A stretch of DNA of 64,000 bases from a bacterium (GTDB lineage Bacteria; Actinomycetota; Thermoleophilia; Solirubrobacterales; Solirubrobacteraceae), in assembly GCA_021323635.1 (NCBI GenBank), contig JAJPKQ010000022.1:62001-126000 (forward strand). The letters run 5' to 3'. The notes under the pieces were generated by a model. That model saw nothing but the letters and a program-made list of their open reading frames with translations, was not told the DNA's origin and did not search any database. The translations under genes were made by a program, and so were the position numbers. Positions 49,167 through 60,500 of the stretch are shown in pieces (the first letter of the stretch is position 1; every line of letters starts with the position of its first letter).

Positions 49167-49371
49167 ACTCGTCCGATCGTCGCCCCGCGGGATTCCCTTT
49201 AGGGGCCGGTTTGCACGTGGGCGGATGGGCGGCTAGTGCGGACCGCTTTCACAGGCGTTGAATCCACGCTTGCAACAATGATAGCGAAGCCTGCCAGAGC
49301 AGAGGCGTCGCTGCGATCGCCGGCACCGATCGCCAGCCACCGACCGCAAGCTCATTACTTGCATATAAGTT

Positions 49372-49377
49372 TATACT
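49372..49377 (+). promoter_or_regulatory. -10 hexamer TATACT of the TetR/acyl-CoA operon
   Basis: TATACT ends 8 nt before the ATG at 49386, in an AT-rich island with overlapping short inverted repeats (ACTTGCATATAAGT at 49357-49370 and AGTTTATACT at 49369-49378... approximate), which could form the TetR operator. It predicts a leaderless, autoregulated transcript. Confidence 0.5.
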
Positions 49378-49385
49378 CTGGTAAT

Positions 49386-50099
49386 ATGGCAGCGATGGCA
49401 CCGCCGAACCAGCTGGCCACAACGTCGCCGAGGACGCTTGCAGATGGTCGCCAGGACGCCGCGCCGGCGTCAGCACCGCACCGTGTGCGGATGGCGCGAC
49501 CTGAGCGCGAAGGGCAGATGCTTGCGGTCGCGCGTGCGCTCTTTGCCGAGCGCGGCTTCGCCGCTGTGACGATGGATGAGGTCGCCACAGCCGCGGGTAT
49601 CACCAAGCCGCTGCTCTACAACTACTTCGGCAACAAGGAGCAGCTCTATCTGGCGTGCATGGGTCCGGCAGGCGACGCGCTCCTGGAGGCGATCCTGAAG
49701 GCTGTGCGGGCCGCCGCAGATCCCGCCGAGGCGCTTGAAGTGGGCATCGGCGCCTTCTTCGCCTTCCTGGACAGCGAACGTGGCGCCTGGAGGGTGCTCT
49801 TCGACGAGACGCTGCCGGCCTCCGGCGAGGTCGCTCTGCGCGTGGCCGAGTACCGCGAGCGGCTGGCGGCGCTGCTTGAAGAGGCGCTTGGGGCTCAGCT
49901 CGGCGGCAGCGTCAGCGGGCGGGTGGCGACCGAAGTGCGCGCGCTCTCCGCCGCGGTGCTCGGCGCCGCTGAGGCGCTCGGCCGCTGGTGGCTGAGCGAG
50001 CAGAGCATCTCCGCCGCGGAGGCGGCGCAGATGCTGGCGGAGACGCTTGCGCCGGGGATGCGCGCGCGCATCGCGGCGCGCGCGGGGGGAGCACGATGA
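49386..50099 (+). CDS. TetR-family regulator of the acyl-CoA operon
   Basis: 237 aa from ATG 49386. The helix-turn-helix lies at about 43-85 (AVARALFAERGFAAVTMDEV, ATAAGITKPLLYNYFGNKEQ, LYLACM). The C-terminal ligand domain (about 95-230) is helical. The next gene starts within its stop (ATGA), so it is cotranslated with the acyl-CoA genes. By analogy with FadR/PaaR-type TetR proteins, an acyl-CoA or related thioester is the likely inducer. The frame is open to 49236, but the leaderless -10 hexamer favours 49386. Confidence 0.87.
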   Translation: MAAMAPPNQLATTSPRTLADGRQDAAPASAPHRVRMARPEREGQMLAVARALFAERGFAAVTMDEVATAAGITKPLLYNYFGNKEQLYLACMGPAGDALLEAILKAVRAAADPAEALEVGIGAFFAFLDSERGAWRVLFDETLPASGEVALRVAEYRERLAALLEEALGAQLGGSVSGRVATEVRALSAAVLGAAEALGRWWLSEQSISAAEAAQMLAETLAPGMRARIAARAGGAR

Positions 50100-51382
50100 G
50101 CGCGAGCGGCCAGCAGCTGCGGGAGGCGGTGATCGTGGGCGGCAACCGCATCCCGTTTGCGCGCTCCAACAGCGCCTACGCCGAGGAGACCAACGAGAAG
50201 ATGCTGACCGCGGCGCTGGAAGGGCTGATCGAGCGCTTCGACCTTGCCGGGGAGCGCCTCGGCGAGGTTGTCGGCGGAGCGGTCCTCAAGCACCCTCGCG
50301 ACCATGGCCTCACCAGGGAGAGCGTGCTTGGCAGCAGGCTTGCCCCCGAGACGCCGGCATATGACGTTCAGCAGGCCTGCGGCACCGGTCTGGAGGCGGC
50401 GATCCTGGTCGCCAACAAGGTCTCGCTCGGTCAGATCGAGGTGGGGATCGCAGGCGGGGTGGATACGACCTCCGATGCTCCGATCACGCTCTCAGACTCC
50501 CTGCGCGCGAAGCTTGTGCGGGCAAACGCCGAGCGCACATGGAAGGGCAAGCTGCGCCAGGTCGCGCGGATCCGCCCGCCCGACCTGATCCCGGAGCCGC
50601 CGCGAAATGTGGAGCCACGGACCGGCCTCTCGATGGGCGAGCACTGCGCGATCATGGCGCGCGAATGGCAGGTCAGCCGCGAGGAGCAGGACCAGCTGAC
50701 GGTGGAGAGCCACCGCAAGCTCGCCGCCGCCTATGAGCGCGGCTTCTTTGCCGATCTGCTGACCCCCCATGCGGGGCTTGAGCGCGACCAGAACCTGCGC
50801 GCTGACTCCACGCTTGAGAAGCTTGCGCGCCTGAAGCCGGTCTTCGGCGGCCCGGAGGGAACGATGACCGCTGGCAATTCGACGCCGCTCTCCGATGGCG
50901 CCTCGGCGGTGCTGATCGCAAGCGAGCAGTGGGCGCGGGAGCGCGACCTGCCGATTCTCGCCCGCATCACCCACGCGCAGACCGCGGCGGTCGATCACGT
51001 CGGACGCCGCGAAGGGCTGCTGATGGCGCCCGCCTATGCGATGGAGCGGATGCTCGCGCGGGCGGGGCTGGCGCTGCAGGACTTCGACCTCTATGAGATT
51101 CACGAGGCCTTTGCCGCGCAGGTGCTGTGCACGCTGAAGGCGTGGGAGGACGAGAGCTTCTGCCGGGAGCGGCTCGGGCGCGAGCAGCCGCTCGGGGAGA
51201 TCGACCGCGAGCGGCTGAACGTCAATGGCGGCTCGCTCGCCGCAGGCCACCCCTTTGCGGCCACCGGCGGGAGGCTTGTCGCGGGGCTGGCAAAGGCGCT
51301 GGCGGAGCGCGGCGGCGGCCGCGGCGTGATCTCCGTGTGCGCCGCGGGCGGCCAGGGAGTTGTGGCGATCCTTGAATCGTGA
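50096..51382 (+). CDS. Acetyl-CoA C-acyltransferase (FadA2-like thiolase)
   Basis: 428 aa. Thiolase residues are all present: nucleophile cysteine in VQQACGTGLEAA, histidine in EIHEAFAAQV, the GGSLAAGHPFAATGGR glycine loop and the second cysteine in VCAAGGQGVV. It cleaves 3-oxoacyl-CoA to acetyl-CoA and a shortened acyl-CoA, or runs in the condensing direction. The order thiolase - FabG4-like - HtdX-like recalls mycobacterial Rv0243-Rv0242c-Rv0241c. ATG overlaps the tetR stop by 4 nt. Confidence 0.92.
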   Translation: MSASGQQLREAVIVGGNRIPFARSNSAYAEETNEKMLTAALEGLIERFDLAGERLGEVVGGAVLKHPRDHGLTRESVLGSRLAPETPAYDVQQACGTGLEAAILVANKVSLGQIEVGIAGGVDTTSDAPITLSDSLRAKLVRANAERTWKGKLRQVARIRPPDLIPEPPRNVEPRTGLSMGEHCAIMAREWQVSREEQDQLTVESHRKLAAAYERGFFADLLTPHAGLERDQNLRADSTLEKLARLKPVFGGPEGTMTAGNSTPLSDGASAVLIASEQWARERDLPILARITHAQTAAVDHVGRREGLLMAPAYAMERMLARAGLALQDFDLYEIHEAFAAQVLCTLKAWEDESFCRERLGREQPLGEIDRERLNVNGGSLAAGHPFAATGGRLVAGLAKALAERGGGRGVISVCAAGGQGVVAILES

Positions 51383-51409
51383 TTGCAGGCGAAAGATGAG
51401 GTGGCAGTG

Positions 51410-52750
51410 ATGGCAGACACGTACGCGAAGGTTGTGAATGCGCCGCCGGTGCGACCGCTGGCGGCCCGACTGGGGCTGCCGCGCCCGCCGCAGCTTGAGC
51501 GCGGCGCGGGGCCGCTTGGCGCGCTGCAGGCGGGGATCGTGCTCGGCGCCGCCCCTGAAGGGAGCCTCAAGGGGGCGCTCTCGGCGGCGCTCGAGCGCTG
51601 CCTCCCGCGCACCCCTGTGCGCGAGGGCGGGCAGGGAGAGGCCGCCGGTGCTCTGATCTTCGACGCCAGCGGGATCGCGGAGCCCGGAGCGCTCGGCTGT
51701 CTGCAGGAGTTCTTCTCGCCACGGGTGCGCGCCCTGGCTCCCAGCGGGCGGGTGATTGTTGCGGCGCTGGCACCCGAGCGCTGCGCCGACCTGCGGGCGC
51801 GCGCGGCGCAGCGGGCGCTTGAGGGCTTCACGCGCGCGCTCGGCAAGGAGCTCGGGCGCCGCGGCGTGACCGTCAACCTGCTGCGCGTGGAGGAGGGCGC
51901 AGAGCAGGCGCTCGACTCGACGCTGGCCTTTCTGCTTTCCGGGCGCTCCGCATACGTCTCCGGGCAGGTGATCACGCTGCAGCCGCCCGCCGGCACGCCC
52001 GAGCAGGTCGACCCCGATCGGCCGCTCGCCGGTCGCAGGGCGCTGGTGACCGGGGCCGCACGCGGGATCGGTGCGGCGATCGCCCAGACGCTCGCGCGCC
52101 AGGGGGCGGCCGTGACCGGGATCGATGTGCCCGCTGCGGCGCAGACGCTCCGCGCGACGATGGGGCTGATCTCCGGGCGCGCGATCACGCTTGACATAAC
52201 TGCTCAGGATGCGCCACGGAAGATCATCGAGGCGCTTGCCGAGGGCGTTGACGTGGTTGTGCACAACGCCGGCGTCACCCGCGACCGCACGCTTGCGAAG
52301 ATGGATGCTGAGCGCTTCAGCTCGGTGATCGAGATCAACGCGGTAGCCGTCGAAGAGATCAACGCCGCGCTGCTTGAGGCCGATGCGCTGCGGGCGGGCG
52401 GGCGCATCGTCTGCCTCTCCTCGATCGCTGGGATCGCGGGCAATGCGGGGCAGACCAACTATGCGACCTCCAAGGCCTGCGTGATCGGCATCGTGCAAGC
52501 GCTTGCGCCGGTGCTCGCAGAGCGCGGCGGGGCGACGATCAATGCGGTCGCGCCGGGCTTCATCGAGACGCAGATGACCGCCGCGATGCCCTTTGCGATC
52601 CGCGAAGCGGGCAGGCGCATGAGCAGCCTCCTGCAGGGCGGCCTGCCCGAGGATGTCGCGGAGACCGTGGGCTGGCTTGCCGACCCCCGCTCGAGCGCGA
52701 TCAACGGCTCGGTGATCCGCGTCTGCGGCCAGAGCTTCCTGGGGGCTTAG
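51410..52750 (+). CDS. High-molecular-weight 3-oxoacyl reductase (FabG4-like)
   Basis: 446 aa, close to the 454 aa of mycobacterial FabG4 (Rv0242c). It has the two-part build of that group: an N-terminal Rossmann-like domain without cofactor motif (about 1-200) and a C-terminal SDR domain with VTGAARGIGAAIA, HNAGVTRDRTLAKM, SSIAGIAGNAGQTNYATSKA (catalytic S, Y, K) and PGFIETQMT. FabG4 uses NADH and 3-oxoacyl-CoA, giving the (R)-3-hydroxyacyl form. ATG 51410 chosen (MADTYAKVVN aligns with family starts); a TTG at 51383 would add nine residues. Confidence 0.9.
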   Translation: MADTYAKVVNAPPVRPLAARLGLPRPPQLERGAGPLGALQAGIVLGAAPEGSLKGALSAALERCLPRTPVREGGQGEAAGALIFDASGIAEPGALGCLQEFFSPRVRALAPSGRVIVAALAPERCADLRARAAQRALEGFTRALGKELGRRGVTVNLLRVEEGAEQALDSTLAFLLSGRSAYVSGQVITLQPPAGTPEQVDPDRPLAGRRALVTGAARGIGAAIAQTLARQGAAVTGIDVPAAAQTLRATMGLISGRAITLDITAQDAPRKIIEALAEGVDVVVHNAGVTRDRTLAKMDAERFSSVIEINAVAVEEINAALLEADALRAGGRIVCLSSIAGIAGNAGQTNYATSKACVIGIVQALAPVLAERGGATINAVAPGFIETQMTAAMPFAIREAGRRMSSLLQGGLPEDVAETVGWLADPRSSAINGSVIRVCGQSFLGA

Positions 52751-52753
52751 GCG

Positions 52754-53692
52754 GTGACCGCGGCGGGCACAGCACGTCGGGACCTGCGCGAGCTTCCGCA
52801 TCTGCTGCCGCTCTACGCGCGTGCGGCGGCGGGCCTGCTGCCCGGCGCGGCGCTGCTGCCGTGGGTTCCTGGCGGGGGCGGTGCGCTGCCGGCGCTTGAG
52901 CTCTCTGCAGAGGGGGTTCTGATCGAGCGCGGGCGCCTTGGCGCCTACAACGCGGTGTGCGGCTTTGCGCAGGCCACAGAGGTGCCCTCGACCTACCTGC
53001 ACATCCTTGCCTTCCCGCTGCAGATGGCGCTGATGGCGGACGGGCGCTTCCCGTTCTCGCCGGTCGGGCTCGTGCACATCGAGAATGAGATCACTCAGCA
53101 CGCACGGGTGCCGGCGGGAGCGGAGATCGCGCTCTCGGCCAGGACCGGGGCGCTGGCGGCGCACCCCCGCGGCGCAAGCTTCGACCTCGAGGCGCAGGCG
53201 CGCGTCGAGGGGGAGCTGATCTGGAGCGAGCGCTCCGTGATGCTGAAGGTCGGCGCGCGCGCGCCGCAGGATGCCGGTGCGCCGGGCGCAAAGCCCGCCG
53301 GCGGCCTGAGCGGCGCGGACGCAGCGGCAGAGGGCAGCGCGCCGGCGGGGGAGCAGGTGTGGGATTGCCCGGCTGACCTCGGCAGGCGCTACGGCGCGGT
53401 GTCAGGCGACCGCAACCCGATCCACATGCACCCGCTCGCTGCGCGCCTCTTTGGCTTCCCGCGCGCGATCGCCCACGGCATGTGGTCGAAGGCCCGCTGC
53501 GTCGCCGCCCTTGCCGACCAGCTTCCTGAGCGCTACAGCGTGCAGGTCTCCTTCCGGCGGCCGATCCTGCTGCCGGCGCAGGTGCGCTTTCAGCGCTTTG
53601 CGGAAGCCGAAGGCGCGGGCGCGATCGCCTTTGCGCTGCGCAGCGCGGCCGGAGACCAGCTTCACCTCCAAGGCGCGGTGAGGCCGCTGTGA
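52754..53692 (+). CDS. MaoC-like (R)-specific enoyl-CoA hydratase (HtdX-like)
   Basis: 312 aa double hot-dog protein. The hydratase-2 motif is in the C-terminal half: RYGAVSGDRNPIHMHPLAAR, LFGFPRAIAHGMW, with the catalytic aspartate and histidine. The N-terminal half (about 1-170) is the degenerate hot dog. HtdX (Rv0241c) is its likely mycobacterial counterpart, also next to FabG4. It interconverts trans-2-enoyl-CoA and (R)-3-hydroxyacyl-CoA. GTG start 3 bp after the fabG4 stop; the 3' end overlaps the next gene by 4 nt. Confidence 0.9.
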   Translation: MTAAGTARRDLRELPHLLPLYARAAAGLLPGAALLPWVPGGGGALPALELSAEGVLIERGRLGAYNAVCGFAQATEVPSTYLHILAFPLQMALMADGRFPFSPVGLVHIENEITQHARVPAGAEIALSARTGALAAHPRGASFDLEAQARVEGELIWSERSVMLKVGARAPQDAGAPGAKPAGGLSGADAAAEGSAPAGEQVWDCPADLGRRYGAVSGDRNPIHMHPLAARLFGFPRAIAHGMWSKARCVAALADQLPERYSVQVSFRRPILLPAQVRFQRFAEAEGAGAIAFALRSAAGDQLHLQGAVRPL

Positions 53693-55005
53693 GCGCGGCA
53701 GCGAGAGGCCGTGAGCTTGGGCTGCGCGCGATGCGAGCGCTTGCCTCCTCGCCGACGCTCGATCGCCTGGGCGCGCGCAAGGCGGCAGAGCGGGCGATCT
53801 ATCGGGCGAGCAAGGGCGGCTTTCAGGCGGTGGCGGGCGCGGGGCGCACATTTGCGGCGGCACGCAAGCTGAGGTCGCCGGCGCGCCAGCCGGTGGCCGG
53901 CAAGAGGAGCATGTTTGACCTCACGCCGAGCGCCGAGCAGGAGATGCTGGTCGAGGCGATCGGCGACTTTGCAGGCTCCGCGATGCGCCCGGCGGCAGGT
54001 CAGGCAGACGCCGAGCTGCGCACCCCGCCGGAGCTGCTGGCTCAGGGTGTCGAGCTCGGCCTCTTCGCTTTGGCCATCCCGGAGGAGCTGGGCGGCGTGA
54101 TGGAGGAGCGCTCCGCGGTGACCGCAGCGCTCGCATACGAAGCGCTCGGCCGCGGCGACATGGGCATCGCGCTGGCGATCCTCGCCCCGGCGGCGGTTGC
54201 CACCGCGCTCTCGCTGTGGGGCGACGCCGAGCAGCAGTCGCGCTACCTGGAGCCCTTTGCCGGCGAGCAGCCGCCGGCAGGCGCGCTGGCGCTGCTCGAG
54301 GACGCGCCGCTGTTTGACCCCCTGGCGCCCACGACACGCGCGCGGCGACAGGGTGCAGACTGGCTGCTTGACGGCGAGAAGGCGCTCGTCCCGCGTGCGG
54401 CCGAGGGAGAGCTCTTTGTGGTGGGTGCGCAAACGCCCTCAGGCTCTCCGGGCCTCTTCATCATCGAGGGCGGCAGCGGCGGGCTGAGCGCTCAGGCGCA
54501 GCCGGCGATGGGGCTGCGGGCGGCGGCGACCGCGCGCCTGCGGCTTGAGGAGGTGCGCGTGCCCGCATCCGCGCTGCTTGCCGAGGGCGATCCGGCGGCC
54601 TATCGCGAGTGCGTGCAGCGTGCGCGGATCGCCTGGTGCGCGCTGAGCGTCGGGGTCGCGCAGGCGGTGCGCGACTATGTCATCCCCTACGTCAAGGAGC
54701 GTGTGGCCTTCGGTGAGCCGATCGCAAACCGGCAGGCAGTCGCCTTTGCGGTCGCGGACATCGCGGTCGAGCTTGAAGGCATGCGCCTGGCCACCTGGCG
54801 CGCGGCGAGCCGCGCCGACGCCGGCAGCGAGTTTGCGCGCGAGGCGGCGCTTGCGCGTGCGCTCTGCGCCCGCCATGGGATGAGGATCGGTGCCGAAGGG
54901 GTCCAGCTGCTCGGCGGGCACGGCTACGTCAAGGAGCACCCGGTCGAGCGCTGGTACCGCGACCTGCGCGCCGCAGGGCTGCTCGAGGGAGCGTTGCTGG
55001 TCTAG
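53689..55005 (+). CDS. Acyl-CoA dehydrogenase, FadE24-like
   Basis: 438 aa FAD enzyme. It has a 74-residue N-terminal extension (DRLGARKAAERAIYRASKGG) before the dehydrogenase core (MFDLTPSAEQEMLVEAIGDF); such extensions occur in streptomycete and mycobacterial FadE24-type proteins, so the full-length start is kept. The core ends with YVKEHPVERWYRDLRAAGLL and EG, keeping the catalytic-type glutamate. The central substrate loop is shortened (PRAAEGELFVVG). GTG overlaps the hydratase stop. With the next gene it probably forms a FadE24/FadE23-like heteromer. Confidence 0.88.
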   Translation: MSAAARGRELGLRAMRALASSPTLDRLGARKAAERAIYRASKGGFQAVAGAGRTFAAARKLRSPARQPVAGKRSMFDLTPSAEQEMLVEAIGDFAGSAMRPAAGQADAELRTPPELLAQGVELGLFALAIPEELGGVMEERSAVTAALAYEALGRGDMGIALAILAPAAVATALSLWGDAEQQSRYLEPFAGEQPPAGALALLEDAPLFDPLAPTTRARRQGADWLLDGEKALVPRAAEGELFVVGAQTPSGSPGLFIIEGGSGGLSAQAQPAMGLRAAATARLRLEEVRVPASALLAEGDPAAYRECVQRARIAWCALSVGVAQAVRDYVIPYVKERVAFGEPIANRQAVAFAVADIAVELEGMRLATWRAASRADAGSEFAREAALARALCARHGMRIGAEGVQLLGGHGYVKEHPVERWYRDLRAAGLLEGALLV

Positions 55006-55024
55006 CGATGAGGACGGAAGGCAG

Positions 55025-56233
55025 ATGATCAATCTCGAGATTCCCGGACGGCTGCGGGCGCTTGCCCAGCAGGCAAACGAGGTGGCGCGCGAGGTCTTCC
55101 GACCGATCTCGCGCAAGTACGATCGCGAAGAGCACGCCTACCCCAAGGAGCTGGACATGCTCGCGGCGCTGATGGAGGGGATGGAAGCCTCGGGCGAGAT
55201 GGAGGGCGCGGGCGCGGCGGGCGTGCGCCGCACGGGGGGCGGCGAAGAGGGAGTGCGCAACGGCTCGAACATGGCGACCGTGCTGGGGATCATCGAGCTC
55301 TGCTACGGAGACGTCGGGCTGCTGCTGACGATGCCCCGCCAGGGCCTCGGCAACTCGGCGATCGCCTCGGTTGCGAACGAGGAGCAGCTGCAGCGCTTCG
55401 GCGGCAAATGGGCGGCGATGGCGATCACCGAGCCCGAGGCGGGGTCGGACTCGGCGGCGATCAAGACGACAGCGGTGCTCGATGGCGACGAGTACGTCCT
55501 CAATGGCGAGAAGATCTTTGTGACCTCAGGCTCGCGCGCGGACCTGATCGTCGTCTGGGCGACGCTAGATCGGAGCAAGGGCCGCGCCGCGATCAAGTCC
55601 TTTGTGGTGCCGCGCGAGACTCCCGGGCTGATCCTGGAGCGCGTCGAGCACAAGCTCGGGATCCGTGCCTCCGACACCGCGAACTTCCGCCTGGAGAACT
55701 GCCGCATACCAAAGGAGAACCTGCTTGGAAGCCCCGAGATCGACACCGCGAAGGGGTTTGCGGGCGTCATGCAGACCTTTGACAACACCCGCCCGCTGGT
55801 CGCGGGGATGGCGGTGGGGCTGGCGCGCGCGTGCATCGAGGAGACGACGCGCCTGCTTGCGGAGGCGGGCGTGCGCGTCGATCCCACCCGCCCGGCATAC
55901 GCGCAGCCCGCGGCTGCCGCGCGCCTGCTGGAGCTGGAGGCAGACTACGAGGCGGCGCGCCTGCTCACGATCCAGGCCGCCTGGATGGCCGACAACGCAA
56001 AGCCCAACTCGCTGCAGGCCTCGATGGCGAAGGCGAAGGCCGGGCGCACCTGCGTCGAGGTGGCGCTCGGCTGCGTGGAGCTTGCCGGCGGCCTCGGCTA
56101 CAGCGAGGAGAGCCTGCTTGAGAAGTGGGCGCGCGATGCGAAGATCCTCGACATCTTCGAGGGCACACAGCAGATCCAGCTGCTGATCATCGCCCGCCAG
56201 CTGCTGGGGAAGAGCTCGGCGGAGCTGCGGTAG
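55025..56233 (+). CDS. Acyl-CoA dehydrogenase, FadE23-like
   Basis: 402 aa from ATG 55025, with GGAAGG just upstream. Classic blocks are intact: AMAITEPEAGSDSAAIKTTA, VLNGEKIFVTSG, LGIRASDTANFRLENCRIPK, and ...WARDAKILDIFEGTQQIQLL with the catalytic glutamate in FEGT. It introduces the trans-2 double bond into acyl-CoA. The size matches mycobacterial FadE23, whose gene is also paired with FadE24. It closes the TetR-headed operon. Confidence 0.92.
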   Translation: MINLEIPGRLRALAQQANEVAREVFRPISRKYDREEHAYPKELDMLAALMEGMEASGEMEGAGAAGVRRTGGGEEGVRNGSNMATVLGIIELCYGDVGLLLTMPRQGLGNSAIASVANEEQLQRFGGKWAAMAITEPEAGSDSAAIKTTAVLDGDEYVLNGEKIFVTSGSRADLIVVWATLDRSKGRAAIKSFVVPRETPGLILERVEHKLGIRASDTANFRLENCRIPKENLLGSPEIDTAKGFAGVMQTFDNTRPLVAGMAVGLARACIEETTRLLAEAGVRVDPTRPAYAQPAAAARLLELEADYEAARLLTIQAAWMADNAKPNSLQASMAKAKAGRTCVEVALGCVELAGGLGYSEESLLEKWARDAKILDIFEGTQQIQLLIIARQLLGKSSAELR

Positions 56234-58859: not shown

Positions 58860-59990
58860 TCAGCTCTCGGTCGCGGTTGAAGCCGGTCCGCGCACGCGGT
58901 AGAGGCGGACCGGCTCGCTGATCCCGCGCAGCCGCCGCGCGCCGGCGAAGGACCAGCTGAAGGGCTCCTCGGGAAGCGCTCGGCGCACCTCCTCGTGGGT
59001 CAGGACGCTGCCCGGGCGGGCGATGTCGGTCAGCCGGCTGGCGAGGTTGACCGGCCGTCCGTACCAGTCCGCAGCGCGCGAGAGGGCGTGTCCAAAGGCG
59101 ATGCCGGCACGCAGGCGCGGCAGCGCGTGCTCTGCCTCCGCGACATCGACCAGCCTCAGCGCGGTCTCAAGCAGCGGCGGCAGCTCGGCGCTGACGAGCA
59201 TGAGGCCGTCGCCGAGCGTCTTGACCAGGCGCACAGGCGGATGCGCAAGCTCGGCCCCGAGCGTCTCCAGACGCAGCGCGATCGCGGTCAGCTCGTGCGG
59301 CTCCAGGCGCTCGCCGGCGCGGGTGAAGCCGACGAGGTCGGCAAAGGCGACGCCGATCGGCCGCGCTCCCGGGAGCGCGGCCGCTGATAGCTCGGCGGCG
59401 CTGACCGCCTCGGAGCGGAAGTGGTTGCGCAGGTGCAGGCCGAGCGTGCGGCCGAGCAGCTGGTCGAGCATCGGCGTCAGCGCAGAGACGACCTGCACCC
59501 AGCGCTCCGCAAGCTCCTCCTCGCGTGCGCCCGGATCGCGCGTGAGCGAGATCGCGACCTCTCCCATCACCTCTGCCACCGGCGGCAGCGCGCGCGCGAG
59601 CACGCGTGCGACCTCGAGCAGGCTCTCATCGCCCACGCCGGCTGCGCGATAGGCGGCGAGCACGCGCGCAAGCTCCAGGTCGCCGTCGCCGTAGACGCGT
59701 TCCTGCGCGCCCGCCACGGCAAGCCCGGCCGCGTGCATCACTTGCTCCAGGAATGCCGGATCGAGCCCGGAGGCGGCGGCCACCTCCGCTCTGGTGTGTT
59801 TGGCGCCGCCGCCCACCAGGCGCTCCGCGCCCACGAACAGCAGCGTGTCGTTGGCCTGCGCGCTGCGCAGCTCCTCGACTCCGACGCCGCTTGCTGCAAG
59901 TCGGCGCAGCAGTCGCAGGCGCTCTGCGCGCGCATCGCCGCTCAAGCCATCGAGCAGGCCCTCGGCTGCAAAATCGATCTGCTGTGGCAT
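58860..59990 (-). CDS. Soluble class III adenylate cyclase, Rv1264-like
   Basis: 376 aa. An all-helical N-terminal regulatory domain (about 1-190, LLDGLSGDARAERLRLLRRL start) precedes the cyclase domain. Key residues: AFADLVGFTRAGERL (metal D), LVKTLGDGLMLVSA (adenine-selecting K and second metal D) and DWYGRPVNLASRLTDIARPG (second selector D, transition-state N and R). Mycobacterial Rv1264 (397 aa) has this build and is held inactive by its N-domain until the pH falls. AAGGAG precedes ATG 59990; the longer open frame to 60437 runs into the divergent cupin. Confidence 0.88.
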   Translation of the reverse strand: MPQQIDFAAEGLLDGLSGDARAERLRLLRRLAASGVGVEELRSAQANDTLLFVGAERLVGGGAKHTRAEVAAASGLDPAFLEQVMHAAGLAVAGAQERVYGDGDLELARVLAAYRAAGVGDESLLEVARVLARALPPVAEVMGEVAISLTRDPGAREEELAERWVQVVSALTPMLDQLLGRTLGLHLRNHFRSEAVSAAELSAAALPGARPIGVAFADLVGFTRAGERLEPHELTAIALRLETLGAELAHPPVRLVKTLGDGLMLVSAELPPLLETALRLVDVAEAEHALPRLRAGIAFGHALSRAADWYGRPVNLASRLTDIARPGSVLTHEEVRRALPEEPFSWSFAGARRLRGISEPVRLYRVRGPASTATES

Positions 59991-60068
59991 CGAGCTCCTT
60001 CCCGGGGTGTGCGGAGGCATACATGTAAGCGCAGCGGGCGGCGCGCGGCGCTGTGGCAAGATGAGGCG

Positions 60069-60500
60069 ATGGAGCGCGCAACGACCCAGACGCGTCTGCG
60101 CGAGCGCGCGCCGGAGCGCTTTGTGCCGTTGCGGCGGGAGCTTGGCGTCAGCACCTTCGGGATCAACCAGATCGTGCTGGAGCCCGGGCAGCGCGGGCGC
60201 ATCCATCGTCACCTGCGCCAAGAGGAGGTCTACCTGGTGCTCTCCGGCACACTGAGCCTGCTCATCGACGGCGAGGAGATGGAGCTCGAGGCTGGCGAGC
60301 TGATCCGCGTCGCCCCCGAGTGCCGCCGGCAGCTGGCAAACCGCGGCCCGGGGCCGCTGTCGGTGCTCGCGCTCGGTGGCGCGAATCCCCACGAGGGTCG
60401 TGACGGGGAGGCATTCGAGAGCTTTCACGCCGAGCACGGCGCGCCCCCGCAGGAGCTGCCCCTACCGCCGGACCTCGATCAGGGGGAGCTGCGCGCATAG
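60069..60500 (+). CDS. Cupin-domain protein
   Basis: 143 aa. Cupin motif 1 reads GQRGRIHRHLRQEEVYLVLS with glutamate and histidine ligands, and motif 2 ELEAGELIRVAPECRRQLAN lacks the usual histidine, so metal binding may be partial. No substrate can be assigned. It begins 78 bp from the divergent cyclase and lies 50 bp before the MFS exporter on the same strand. Confidence 0.78.
   Translation: MERATTQTRLRERAPERFVPLRRELGVSTFGINQIVLEPGQRGRIHRHLRQEEVYLVLSGTLSLLIDGEEMELEAGELIRVAPECRRQLANRGPGPLSVLALGGANPHEGRDGEAFESFHAEHGAPPQELPLPPDLDQGELRA

What the first reader, a model, noticed from the sequence alone, without database searches (positions are those of the whole stretch)
49386..56233. Six-gene CoA-linked cycle built from (R)-specific enzymes under a TetR regulator
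Seen: TetR, FadA2-like thiolase, FabG4-like reductase, HtdX-like MaoC hydratase and two acyl-CoA dehydrogenases, joined by 4-nt overlaps or short gaps. Known: FabG4 and HtdX handle (R)-3-hydroxyacyl groups, unlike FadB, which uses (S). In Mycobacterium, FabG4/HtdX/FadA2 and FadE24/FadE23 are separate loci. Inference: here they form one complete cycle, either an (R)-type beta-oxidation or, run backwards, an acyl-carrier-independent chain-elongation route.
Basis: partly seen in the sequence, partly recalled or inferred. Interest (0 to 1): 0.7.

Follow-up and report, generated by a model that had tools for sequence, protein, structure and literature searches.

The report
Complete (R)-type fatty-acid oxidation operon
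One operon encodes enzymes for every step of a fatty-acid breakdown cycle that probably runs through the mirror-image (R) intermediate, and relatives of these genes appear to share one control site in mycobacteria, which suggests a job for mycobacterial enzymes whose role is unsettled.

Summary
The six genes are real and correctly named: TetR, FadA2 thiolase, FabG4 reductase, HtdX hydratase and two acyl-CoA dehydrogenases (ACADs) in one tight operon. The linkage is not chance. In 61 genomes of the order, FadE24-type ACAD1 occurs in 19 of 21 genomes with HtdX and 0 of 40 without; in 296 genomes of the phylum, 15 of 33 and 0 of 263. It persists in three gene orders. The "two dehydrogenases" are probably one heteromeric enzyme: ACAD2 keeps the TEPxxGSD flavin motif and catalytic Glu, ACAD1 the LGG motif. 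A palindrome runs into the TetR start and occurs once in the genome. In eight genomes of the mycobacterial family a related palindrome lies both between FadA2 and FabG4 and before the FadE24-FadE23 pair (8 of 8 each; one other site in about 265 kb). It is missing from most other loci checked. Best reading: an acyl-CoA-responsive operon for beta-oxidation through (R)-3-hydroxyacyl-CoA, NAD-linked. Chain elongation is weaker: FabG4 keeps the NAD-type Asp, the genome has a FAS-II-like cluster, and other mycobacterial sites precede ACAD and thiolase genes. A FadB-type enzyme exists elsewhere. Stereochemistry, direction and substrate are untested.

The parts
49352..49387 (.). Putative TetR operator: palindrome TTAC-N5-TATAAGTTTATA-N5-GTAA (core 49355-49384), running into the TetR start codon
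   Evidence: Shared palindrome before TetR in related loci; only place in the 2.6 Mb genome at up to 3 mismatches; sequence read
49386..50099 (+). TetR-family regulator (TetR_N, TetR_C_46); best NCBIfam model FasR, far below its cut-off
50096..51382 (+). FadA2-type thiolase (next best models are FadI)
   Evidence: NF006740 over cut-off; PDB 7xly 528 bits
51383..52750 (+). FabG4-type high-molecular-weight 3-ketoacyl reductase / (R)-3-hydroxyacyl dehydrogenase, NAD(H)-type Asp248
   Evidence: NF006110 over cut-off; aligned to Mtb FabG4 4fw8; Asp 103 of 103
52754..53692 (+). HtdX-type MaoC hydratase; motif SGDRNPIH with invariant D219 and H224
   Evidence: PF01575 over cut-off; PDB 4oob/3wew; 21-sequence alignment
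53689..55005 (+). ACAD1, FadE24-type subunit: about 77-aa N-terminal extension, degenerate TEPxxGSD, kept QLLGGHGY, C-terminus ends 5 aa after the Glu column
55025..56233 (+). ACAD2, FadE23-type catalytic subunit: TEPEAGSD and catalytic Glu in IFEGTQQIQ

Best explanation
The operon encodes one complete fatty-acyl-CoA beta-oxidation cycle that passes through (R)-3-hydroxyacyl-CoA. Step 1: ACAD1-ACAD2, acting as one heteromeric dehydrogenase, makes the 2-enoyl-CoA and passes electrons to ETF. Step 2: HtdX hydrates it to (R)-3-hydroxyacyl-CoA. Step 3: FabG4 oxidises it with NAD+. Step 4: FadA2 cleaves off acetyl-CoA. The TetR sits on the palindrome at the operon's start and releases it when long acyl-CoA accumulates. 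The same gene set is a second beta-oxidation system, beside a FadB-type (S) route, in a minority of Actinomycetota; in mycobacteria it is split into FadA2/FabG4-HtdX and FadE24-FadE23 but apparently still under one operator. Shown here: gene content, linkage, co-occurrence, complementary flavin motifs, NAD-type residue, shared palindromes. Inferred: stereochemistry, direction, electron acceptor, TetR ligand, TetR-palindrome pairing, substrate.
For: Identities. Co-occurrence: order, ACAD1 in 19 of 21 HtdX+ and 0 of 40 HtdX- genomes, p=7e-14; phylum, 15 of 33 and 0 of 263, p=2e-16 (the two samples share some genomes); by genus in the order 10 of 12 and 0 of 25, p=2e-7. Linkage in three gene orders. 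Complementary motifs: ACAD2 TEP and GSD 37 of 37 and Glu 37 of 37; ACAD1 GG 39 of 39 with TEPxxGSD lost and all 39 ending 5 aa after the Glu column. Operator: two copies where the ACAD pair stands apart, in L069 and L076; in eight f33 genomes 8 of 8 in the FadA2/FabG4 gap and 8 of 8 before ACAD1, one other site in about 265 kb. Other exact sites in those genomes precede two ACADs, SDRs, a thiolase, a flavin monooxygenase and a PE gene. FabG4 Asp, the kind of residue that PMC6008564 credits with NADH specificity. FasR, the best-scoring named TetR model, is released from DNA by C16 and longer acyl-CoA (PMC7382501, passages). PMC4928086 lists Rv0238 as regulator of Rv0241c (HtdX) and Rv0243 (thiolase) (passage).
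Against: PMC6008564 reports Mtb FabG4 four times faster as NADH reductase than as NAD+ dehydrogenase and proposes a role in membrane lipid synthesis, remodelling or recycling. PMC11980559 says the FadE23-FadE24 complex has another catalytic activity than acyl-CoA dehydrogenation, and that deleting the FadE24 orthologue in M. abscessus limits triacylglycerol. In the rv0158 knockout fadE23/24 rise while fabG4 and htdX fall (PMC10501769). The palindrome is absent from 23 of 24 further loci checked (all eight order-B loci, f34, G372, and the separate ACAD1 loci of G154, G081 and G098; only L162 of G017 has one, and none was found near FadA2/FabG4 there). L065 has TetR-FadA2-FabG4-HtdX with neither palindrome nor ACAD1 in 5.7 kb downstream. 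G093 and G160 have the core without ACAD1, and 18 of 33 HtdX+ phylum genomes lack it. ACAD1 keeps a Glu in 37 of 39, unlike the textbook heteromer. TetR orthology between window and mycobacteria is unresolved. ETF genes were not searched for.
Confidence: 0.66

Rival explanations
1. The cycle runs mainly backwards, as malonyl- and ACP-independent elongation or remodelling of acyl-CoA (for example for storage or membrane lipid): FadA2 condenses, FabG4 reduces with NADH, HtdX dehydrates, the ACAD pair acts as enoyl-CoA reductase.
For: FabG4 is faster as a reductase, and PMC6008564 favours a lipid synthesis or remodelling role; FabG4 and FadA2 are found in intracellular lipid inclusions (PMC10699116); loss of the FadE24 orthologue limits triacylglycerol (PMC11980559).
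Against: ACADs normally oxidise; no dedicated enoyl-CoA reductase in the operon; a FAS-II-like cluster elsewhere; NAD(H)-type Asp in 103 of 103; mycobacterial operator-like sites precede further ACADs and a thiolase.
Confidence: 0.15
2. The cycle is catabolic but specialised for bulky or branched acyl-CoA (steroid side-chain-like, isoprenoid, methyl-branched), as heteromeric ACAD plus MaoC hydratase is in sterol and bile-acid pathways. It is a narrower form of the best reading, so its odds overlap with it.
For: Known heteromeric ACADs act on steroid side chains (PMC6678751, PMC8399759, passages); a FadB-type protein already exists for ordinary chains; one extra mycobacterial site precedes a flavin monooxygenase.
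Against: No steroid-ring or aldolase family among the ten flanking ORFs scanned; the best-scoring named TetR model is FasR, a sensor of long acyl-CoA.
Confidence: 0.3
3. The ACAD pair is a co-regulated neighbour with another activity (for example a structural or regulatory role), and FabG4/HtdX/FadA2 use other ACADs such as FadE5.
For: Remark in PMC11980559 on a different activity; 18 of 33 phylum genomes with HtdX lack ACAD1; an ACAD with PF12806 sits beside FadA2 in L159, and another ACAD beside FadA2 in G017 and G154.
Against: ACAD2 keeps the catalytic Glu and flavin motif in 37 of 37; ACAD1 was never found without HtdX in the two samples.
Confidence: 0.13

Closest known systems
Mycobacterial FadA2 / FabG4-HtdX locus (Rv0241c-Rv0243)
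   Same: Same three enzyme families side by side; PMC6008564 describes FabG4-HtdX as a conserved pair whose role is not settled
   Different: In the eight f33 genomes FadA2 is divergent and the FadE24-FadE23 pair is elsewhere; in the window all are in one operon with the TetR
FadE24-FadE23 complex and heteromeric (alpha2beta2) ACADs of sterol and bile-acid degradation
   Same: Adjacent pair with complementary flavin motifs; PMC8399759 describes one FAD per alpha-beta interface (passages)
   Different: ACAD1 keeps a Glu at the catalytic column in 37 of 39; substrate unknown
Peroxisomal multifunctional enzyme type 2 (MFE-2) (R)-beta-oxidation
   Same: MaoC hydratase plus SDR dehydrogenase through the (R)-hydroxy intermediate (pathway recalled; MFE-2-type hydratase chains appear among the HtdX matches)
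   Different: Separate proteins of other subfamilies, and an ACAD instead of an acyl-CoA oxidase (recalled)
FadB/FadJ (S)-type beta-oxidation
   Same: Same overall chemistry
   Different: Opposite stereochemistry by family (recalled); a FadB-like protein is encoded elsewhere in this genome
Reverse beta-oxidation / CoA-linked chain elongation
   Same: Same reaction types in reverse
   Different: No dedicated enoyl-CoA reductase in the operon

Membership tests
(R)-type beta-oxidation cycle | All four activities encoded together | tested here: met
   by family assignment
(R)-type beta-oxidation cycle | Hydratase of the MaoC/hydratase-2 kind with the D-x4-H motif (motif recalled) | tested here: met
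   D219 and H224 invariant in 21 sequences; matches (R)-specific hydratases 1iq6 and 5cpg
(R)-type beta-oxidation cycle | NAD-type SDR dehydrogenase | tested here: met
   Asp aligned with Mtb FabG4, 103 of 103
(R)-type beta-oxidation cycle | (R)-3-hydroxyacyl-CoA is the intermediate, in the oxidative direction | not testable with these tools
   needs enzyme assays
Heteromeric alpha2beta2 ACAD | Two adjacent, divergent ACAD genes kept together | tested here: met
   30% identity between them; pair adjacent in all 19 ACAD1+ genomes of the order sample
Heteromeric alpha2beta2 ACAD | Only one subunit has the catalytic Glu | tested here: inconclusive
   ACAD2 Glu 37 of 37; ACAD1 keeps Glu in 37 of 39 but lacks the T and the C-terminal segment that follow it in ACAD2
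Heteromeric alpha2beta2 ACAD | One FAD per alpha-beta interface, each subunit giving part | tested here: inconclusive
   Complementary motif loss supports it; the window's ACAD2 keeps both G of the GG; no usable structure (ACAD1 model pLDDT 55.8)
HMwFabG (FabG4) | N-terminal domain plus ketoreductase domain with conserved C-terminus | tested here: met
   alignment over residues 11-455 with 4fw8; NF006110 over cut-off
FasR (NF053731) | Model score over the curated cut-off | tested here: not met
   99 against 330 bits: related, not a member
Rv0238-type TetR beside HtdX | Clear best match of the window TetR in mycobacterial-family genomes | tested here: inconclusive
   HtdX-side TetR and a second TetR score about alike, e.g. 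93.7 and 89.3 bits in G265, and in some genomes the other one is higher

The most novel reading that the evidence does not exclude
The set is a reversible, acyl-CoA-gated remodelling cycle that trims and re-extends acyl-CoA without malonyl-CoA or ACP, for example in exchange with storage lipid, conserved from Thermoleophilia to mycobacteria and kept stereochemically apart from the FadB route so that the two pools do not mix.
Probability: 0.13. Interest if true: 0.82.

Novelty: new variant of a known kind. Interest (0 to 1): 0.62.

Why it matters
FabG4 and HtdX are kept even in M. leprae, but their pathway is not settled (PMC6008564). This operon, the phylum-wide co-occurrence and the palindrome shared in mycobacteria suggest that FadE24-FadE23 is their first-step enzyme and that all belong to one TetR-controlled system. 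That gives a concrete experiment for several orphan fatty-acid genes, and a second, mirror-image beta-oxidation route in bacteria that also have a FadB-type enzyme.

Tried and rejected
Operator search of the own genome with the wrong spacer (N6) gave 0; corrected to N5 it gave 1. Assigning the TetR as FasR or as an Rv0238 orthologue: not supported. The Solirubrobacterales matrix was built from 8 sites chosen because they were palindromic; sites not used to build it, at 31 bits or more, are L069 (two), L076 (second), L130 and L162; L071 is the same contig as L050; the best score in one mononucleotide-shuffled control of all loci was 18.6, and the hits below about 24 bits are not relied on. AlphaFold model of ACAD1: pLDDT 55.8, not interpreted. 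Sigma-70 and terminator scans: nothing above shuffles. The viral-contig scan gave one distant relative, not followed. The chance figures rest on a single background site and are not quoted as probabilities. PF02737 rings in 61 of 61 genomes of the order but also in 14 of 14 controls, so it says little about FadB. Co-occurrence counts take genomes as units; the genus count is the more cautious one, and the phylum and order samples overlap. Paper searches for a link between FadE23/24 and FabG4/HtdX/FadA2 showed co-mentions (for example joint rise in PMC10999552; network paths in PMC3296574) but, in the listings and passages seen, no proposal of one cycle; supplementary tables were not open to me, and the original FadE heterotetramer papers were not held.
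Full report
WHAT IS THERE. The window (contig C42:62001-126000 of a 2.6 Mb, 97.5% complete genome) holds six + strand genes at 49386-56233: TetR, FadA2, FabG4, HtdX, ACAD1, ACAD2, with 4-nt overlaps at TetR/FadA2 and HtdX/ACAD1 and gaps of 0 (or 27), 3 and 19 nt elsewhere. Families are clear, and the best matches among solved structures include the M. tuberculosis proteins FadA2, FabG4 and HtdX. A GGDEF gene lies upstream on the other strand; of six ORFs scanned downstream three had no Pfam match and the others were glyoxalase, MarR and adenylate-cyclase types.

LINKAGE. FabG4 matches covering the N-terminal half occurred in 10 of 149 genomes of the class, all in the window's order (376 bits or more; next best 159, C-terminal half only). 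In 61 genomes of the order, HtdX (183 bits or more; next best 39) is in 21. FadA2, FabG4 and HtdX are adjacent in 20 of the 21 (FadA2 divergent in G017 and G154); in G167 the contig ends inside FabG4. ACAD1 (471 bits or more; next best 179) is in 19 genomes, all among the 21, and in 0 of 40 others (Fisher p=7e-14; by genus 10 of 12 against 0 of 25, p=2e-7). The ACAD pair is beside the core in 15 of 21 (3.5 kb away in G005); in G154, G017, G081 and G098 the pair is elsewhere; G093 and G160 lack ACAD1. The other sampled genome of the window's genus, G176, lacks both HtdX and ACAD1. In 296 genomes of the phylum, HtdX (101 bits or more; next 59) is in 33 and ACAD1 (406 bits or more; next 253) in 15, all 15 among the 33; this sample shares some genomes with the order sample, and not every first-look candidate was scored in it.

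GENE ORDERS. (A) [TetR-]FadA2-FabG4-HtdX-ACAD1-ACAD2; (B) ACAD1-ACAD2-FadA2-FabG4-HtdX; (C) HtdX-FabG4-FadA2 divergent from ACAD1-ACAD2, in two genomes of family f34. On a FadA2+FabG4 tree of a chosen subset, order A falls in three groups, order B in one clade (support 0.90, together with G005), and C joins the mycobacterial family (0.99); supports of the deepest nodes were not printed. Among the best 80 named loci found with an HtdX alignment (the scan had more), ACAD1 at 350 bits or more is linked in 12, plus one fragment at a contig end. By record title these 12 are seven Solirubrobacterales, Solirubrobacteraceae or Thermoleophilia MAGs, three Actinomycetota MAGs, the cultured Svornostia abyssi and one MAG titled Bifidobacterium breve. 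Elsewhere FadA2 is mostly divergent from FabG4-HtdX, with no ACAD1 at that level; some of those loci hold other ACADs that match ACAD2 weakly (65-194 bits). L065 is TetR-first but has no ACAD1 in 5.7 kb downstream.

LINK TO MYCOBACTERIA. Family f33 (8 of 8 sampled genomes with both genes) is read as mycobacterial from one member: HtdX of L159 aligns with Mtb HtdX over 253 residues at 481 bits. In L160, ACAD1 and ACAD2 (468 and 401 aa) have an inositol monophosphatase gene just before and zinc dehydrogenases after them, close to impC-pflA-fadE24-fadE23-fadB4 in PMC2834668 (passages); no PflA-like gene was identified there.

ONE ENZYME, NOT TWO. Across 37 distinct ACAD2 sequences the flavin-site letters TEP and GSD and the catalytic Glu380 (aligned with SCAD) are invariant; the second G of the Q..GG.G motif is replaced in 36 (the window's copy keeps it). 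Across 39 distinct ACAD1 sequences GG is invariant, TEPxxGSD has become ExPLFDP-like, Glu433 is kept in 37, and all 39 end five residues after that column, against 23 residues in all 37 ACAD2. This is a complementary pattern as expected of heteromeric ACADs, in which one FAD sits at each alpha-beta interface (PMC8399759, passages); the kept Glu in ACAD1 departs from it. Which motif touches which part of FAD is recalled.

COFACTOR. PMC6008564 (parts 1 and 2 of 3 read) says a single Asp sets NADH specificity in Mtb FabG4. The Asp after the second strand of the Rossmann fold is aligned in the window protein (that this is the Asp meant is inferred) and present in 103 of 103 FabG4 sequences.

OPERATOR. 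A palindrome of the form TTAC-N5-TATAAATTTATA-N5-GTAA precedes TetR in 9 of 10 distinct TetR-first loci (L065 is the exception); 8 of these 9 were used to define it. In L069 and in Svornostia (L076), where ACAD1-ACAD2 stands about 7.5 kb and 1.2 kb downstream of HtdX, a second copy lies about 52 nt before ACAD1; in G017 (L162) a weaker site (31 bits) lies at the front of the separate TetR-ACAD1-ACAD2 operon. In Streptomyces radiopugnans (L130) sites lie in the FadA2/FabG4 gap (23 bits, weak) and near a TetR (35 bits). In the window's genome the motif occurs once at up to 3 mismatches. In the eight f33 genomes a related motif, CTTACTN4AGTAAG (at most 1 mismatch), lies between FadA2 and FabG4 in 8 of 8 and before the matched part of ACAD1 in 8 of 8, with one other site, beside a TetR, in about 265 kb; mononucleotide shuffles gave 0.05 hits per replicate over all 16 loci. 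In five of the eight ACAD1 loci the longest mechanical ORF begins before the site, so true starts matter. Over the eight whole genomes the exact motif has 23 places in 7 genomes (reversed-pattern control 2): 7 in the FadA2/FabG4 gap, 7 by ACAD1, and 9 others whose centre lies 13-45 nt before the first start codon of an ORF that I picked among overlapping ones. Seven of those nine ORFs were scanned: two ACADs, two SDRs, a thiolase, a flavin monooxygenase and a PE protein; the other two look like the SDRs by their first residues. In 57 named loci with divergent FadA2/FabG4 a looser form (YTACTN4AGTAR) is in or near the gap in 17, against 25 hits in 1.10 Mb outside. Against: of 24 further order and phylum loci checked, 23 have none, among them all eight order-B loci, f34, G372 and the separate ACAD1 loci of G154, G081 and G098.

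DIRECTION. The own genome has a FAS-II-like cluster on C29 (ketoacyl synthase just below the FabF cut-off, ACP, FabH-type synthase, two SDRs, an acyltransferase protein and a carboxyltransferase), so the operon is probably not needed for de novo synthesis. A FadB/FadJ-like 671-aa protein lies on C36, so this is an additional route. Published data pull both ways: FabG4 is faster as a reductase; FabG4 and FadA2 occur in lipid inclusions (PMC10699116); FadE24 loss limits triacylglycerol, and the FadE23-FadE24 complex is said to have another activity (PMC11980559); FabG4, FadA2 and FadE23 rise together in a cyp138 mutant (PMC10999552) but fadE23/24 and fabG4/htdX move oppositely in an rv0158 mutant (PMC10501769). 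Of these papers other than PMC6008564 only search passages were seen.

REGULATOR. The best-scoring named TetR model is FasR, at 99 bits against a cut-off of 330; FasR releases DNA when C16 and longer acyl-CoA binds (PMC7382501, passages). In 8 of 8 f33 loci a TetR match lies within about 4.4 kb of HtdX; PMC4482099 names Rv0238 among five TetR regulators conserved in all mycobacteria analysed (passage) and PMC4928086 lists Rv0238 as regulator of Rv0241c (HtdX) and Rv0243 (passage). That the window TetR is its orthologue is not shown, and that it binds the palindrome is inferred.

VERDICT. Ordinary enzyme families in an informative arrangement: most likely a dedicated, TetR-controlled (R)-type beta-oxidation operon whose parts are scattered but apparently still co-regulated in mycobacteria.

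Noticed in passing
L182:2801-3991 (genome G439): An ACAD resembling ACAD2/FadE23 at its N-terminus, apart from the pair locus, with an exact operator-like site just before its start.
   Followed up: partly
L184:2529-3995 (genome G265): A PE-family gene with an exact operator-like site upstream; unexpected beside a fatty-acid regulon and possibly chance.
   Followed up: no
L186/L189 and L187/L188 (genomes G223, G391): Two different SDR genes carry the site in both sampled genomes of one genus.
   Followed up: partly
L069 (CAMCUD010000005.1): A MAG titled Bifidobacterium breve carries this Solirubrobacterales-type operon and groups with Svornostia in the tree; probably a mislabelled bin.
   Followed up: no
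L093, L111, L128, L135, L138 (Alcanivorax and other Gammaproteobacteria): FadA2/FabG4 divergent pair with HtdX several kb away: the core also exists outside Actinomycetota.
   Followed up: no
L059:9833-11845 (own genome C36): FadB-like protein with the hydroxyacyl-CoA dehydrogenase part first and the crotonase part last; a cyclopropane-synthase-like, a desaturase-like and an acyl-AMP/CoA ligase-like gene follow.
   Followed up: partly
genome G176: The other sampled genome of the window's genus lacks both HtdX and ACAD1, so the locus is patchy even within a genus.
   Followed up: no
L194:12197-14575 (own genome C29): 793-aa ORF in the FAS-II-like cluster with a nitronate-monooxygenase-type part and an acyltransferase part in one frame.
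   Followed up: no
window 58860-60437 (-): Adenylate/guanylate cyclase catalytic domain with an adenylate cyclase regulatory domain.
   Followed up: no
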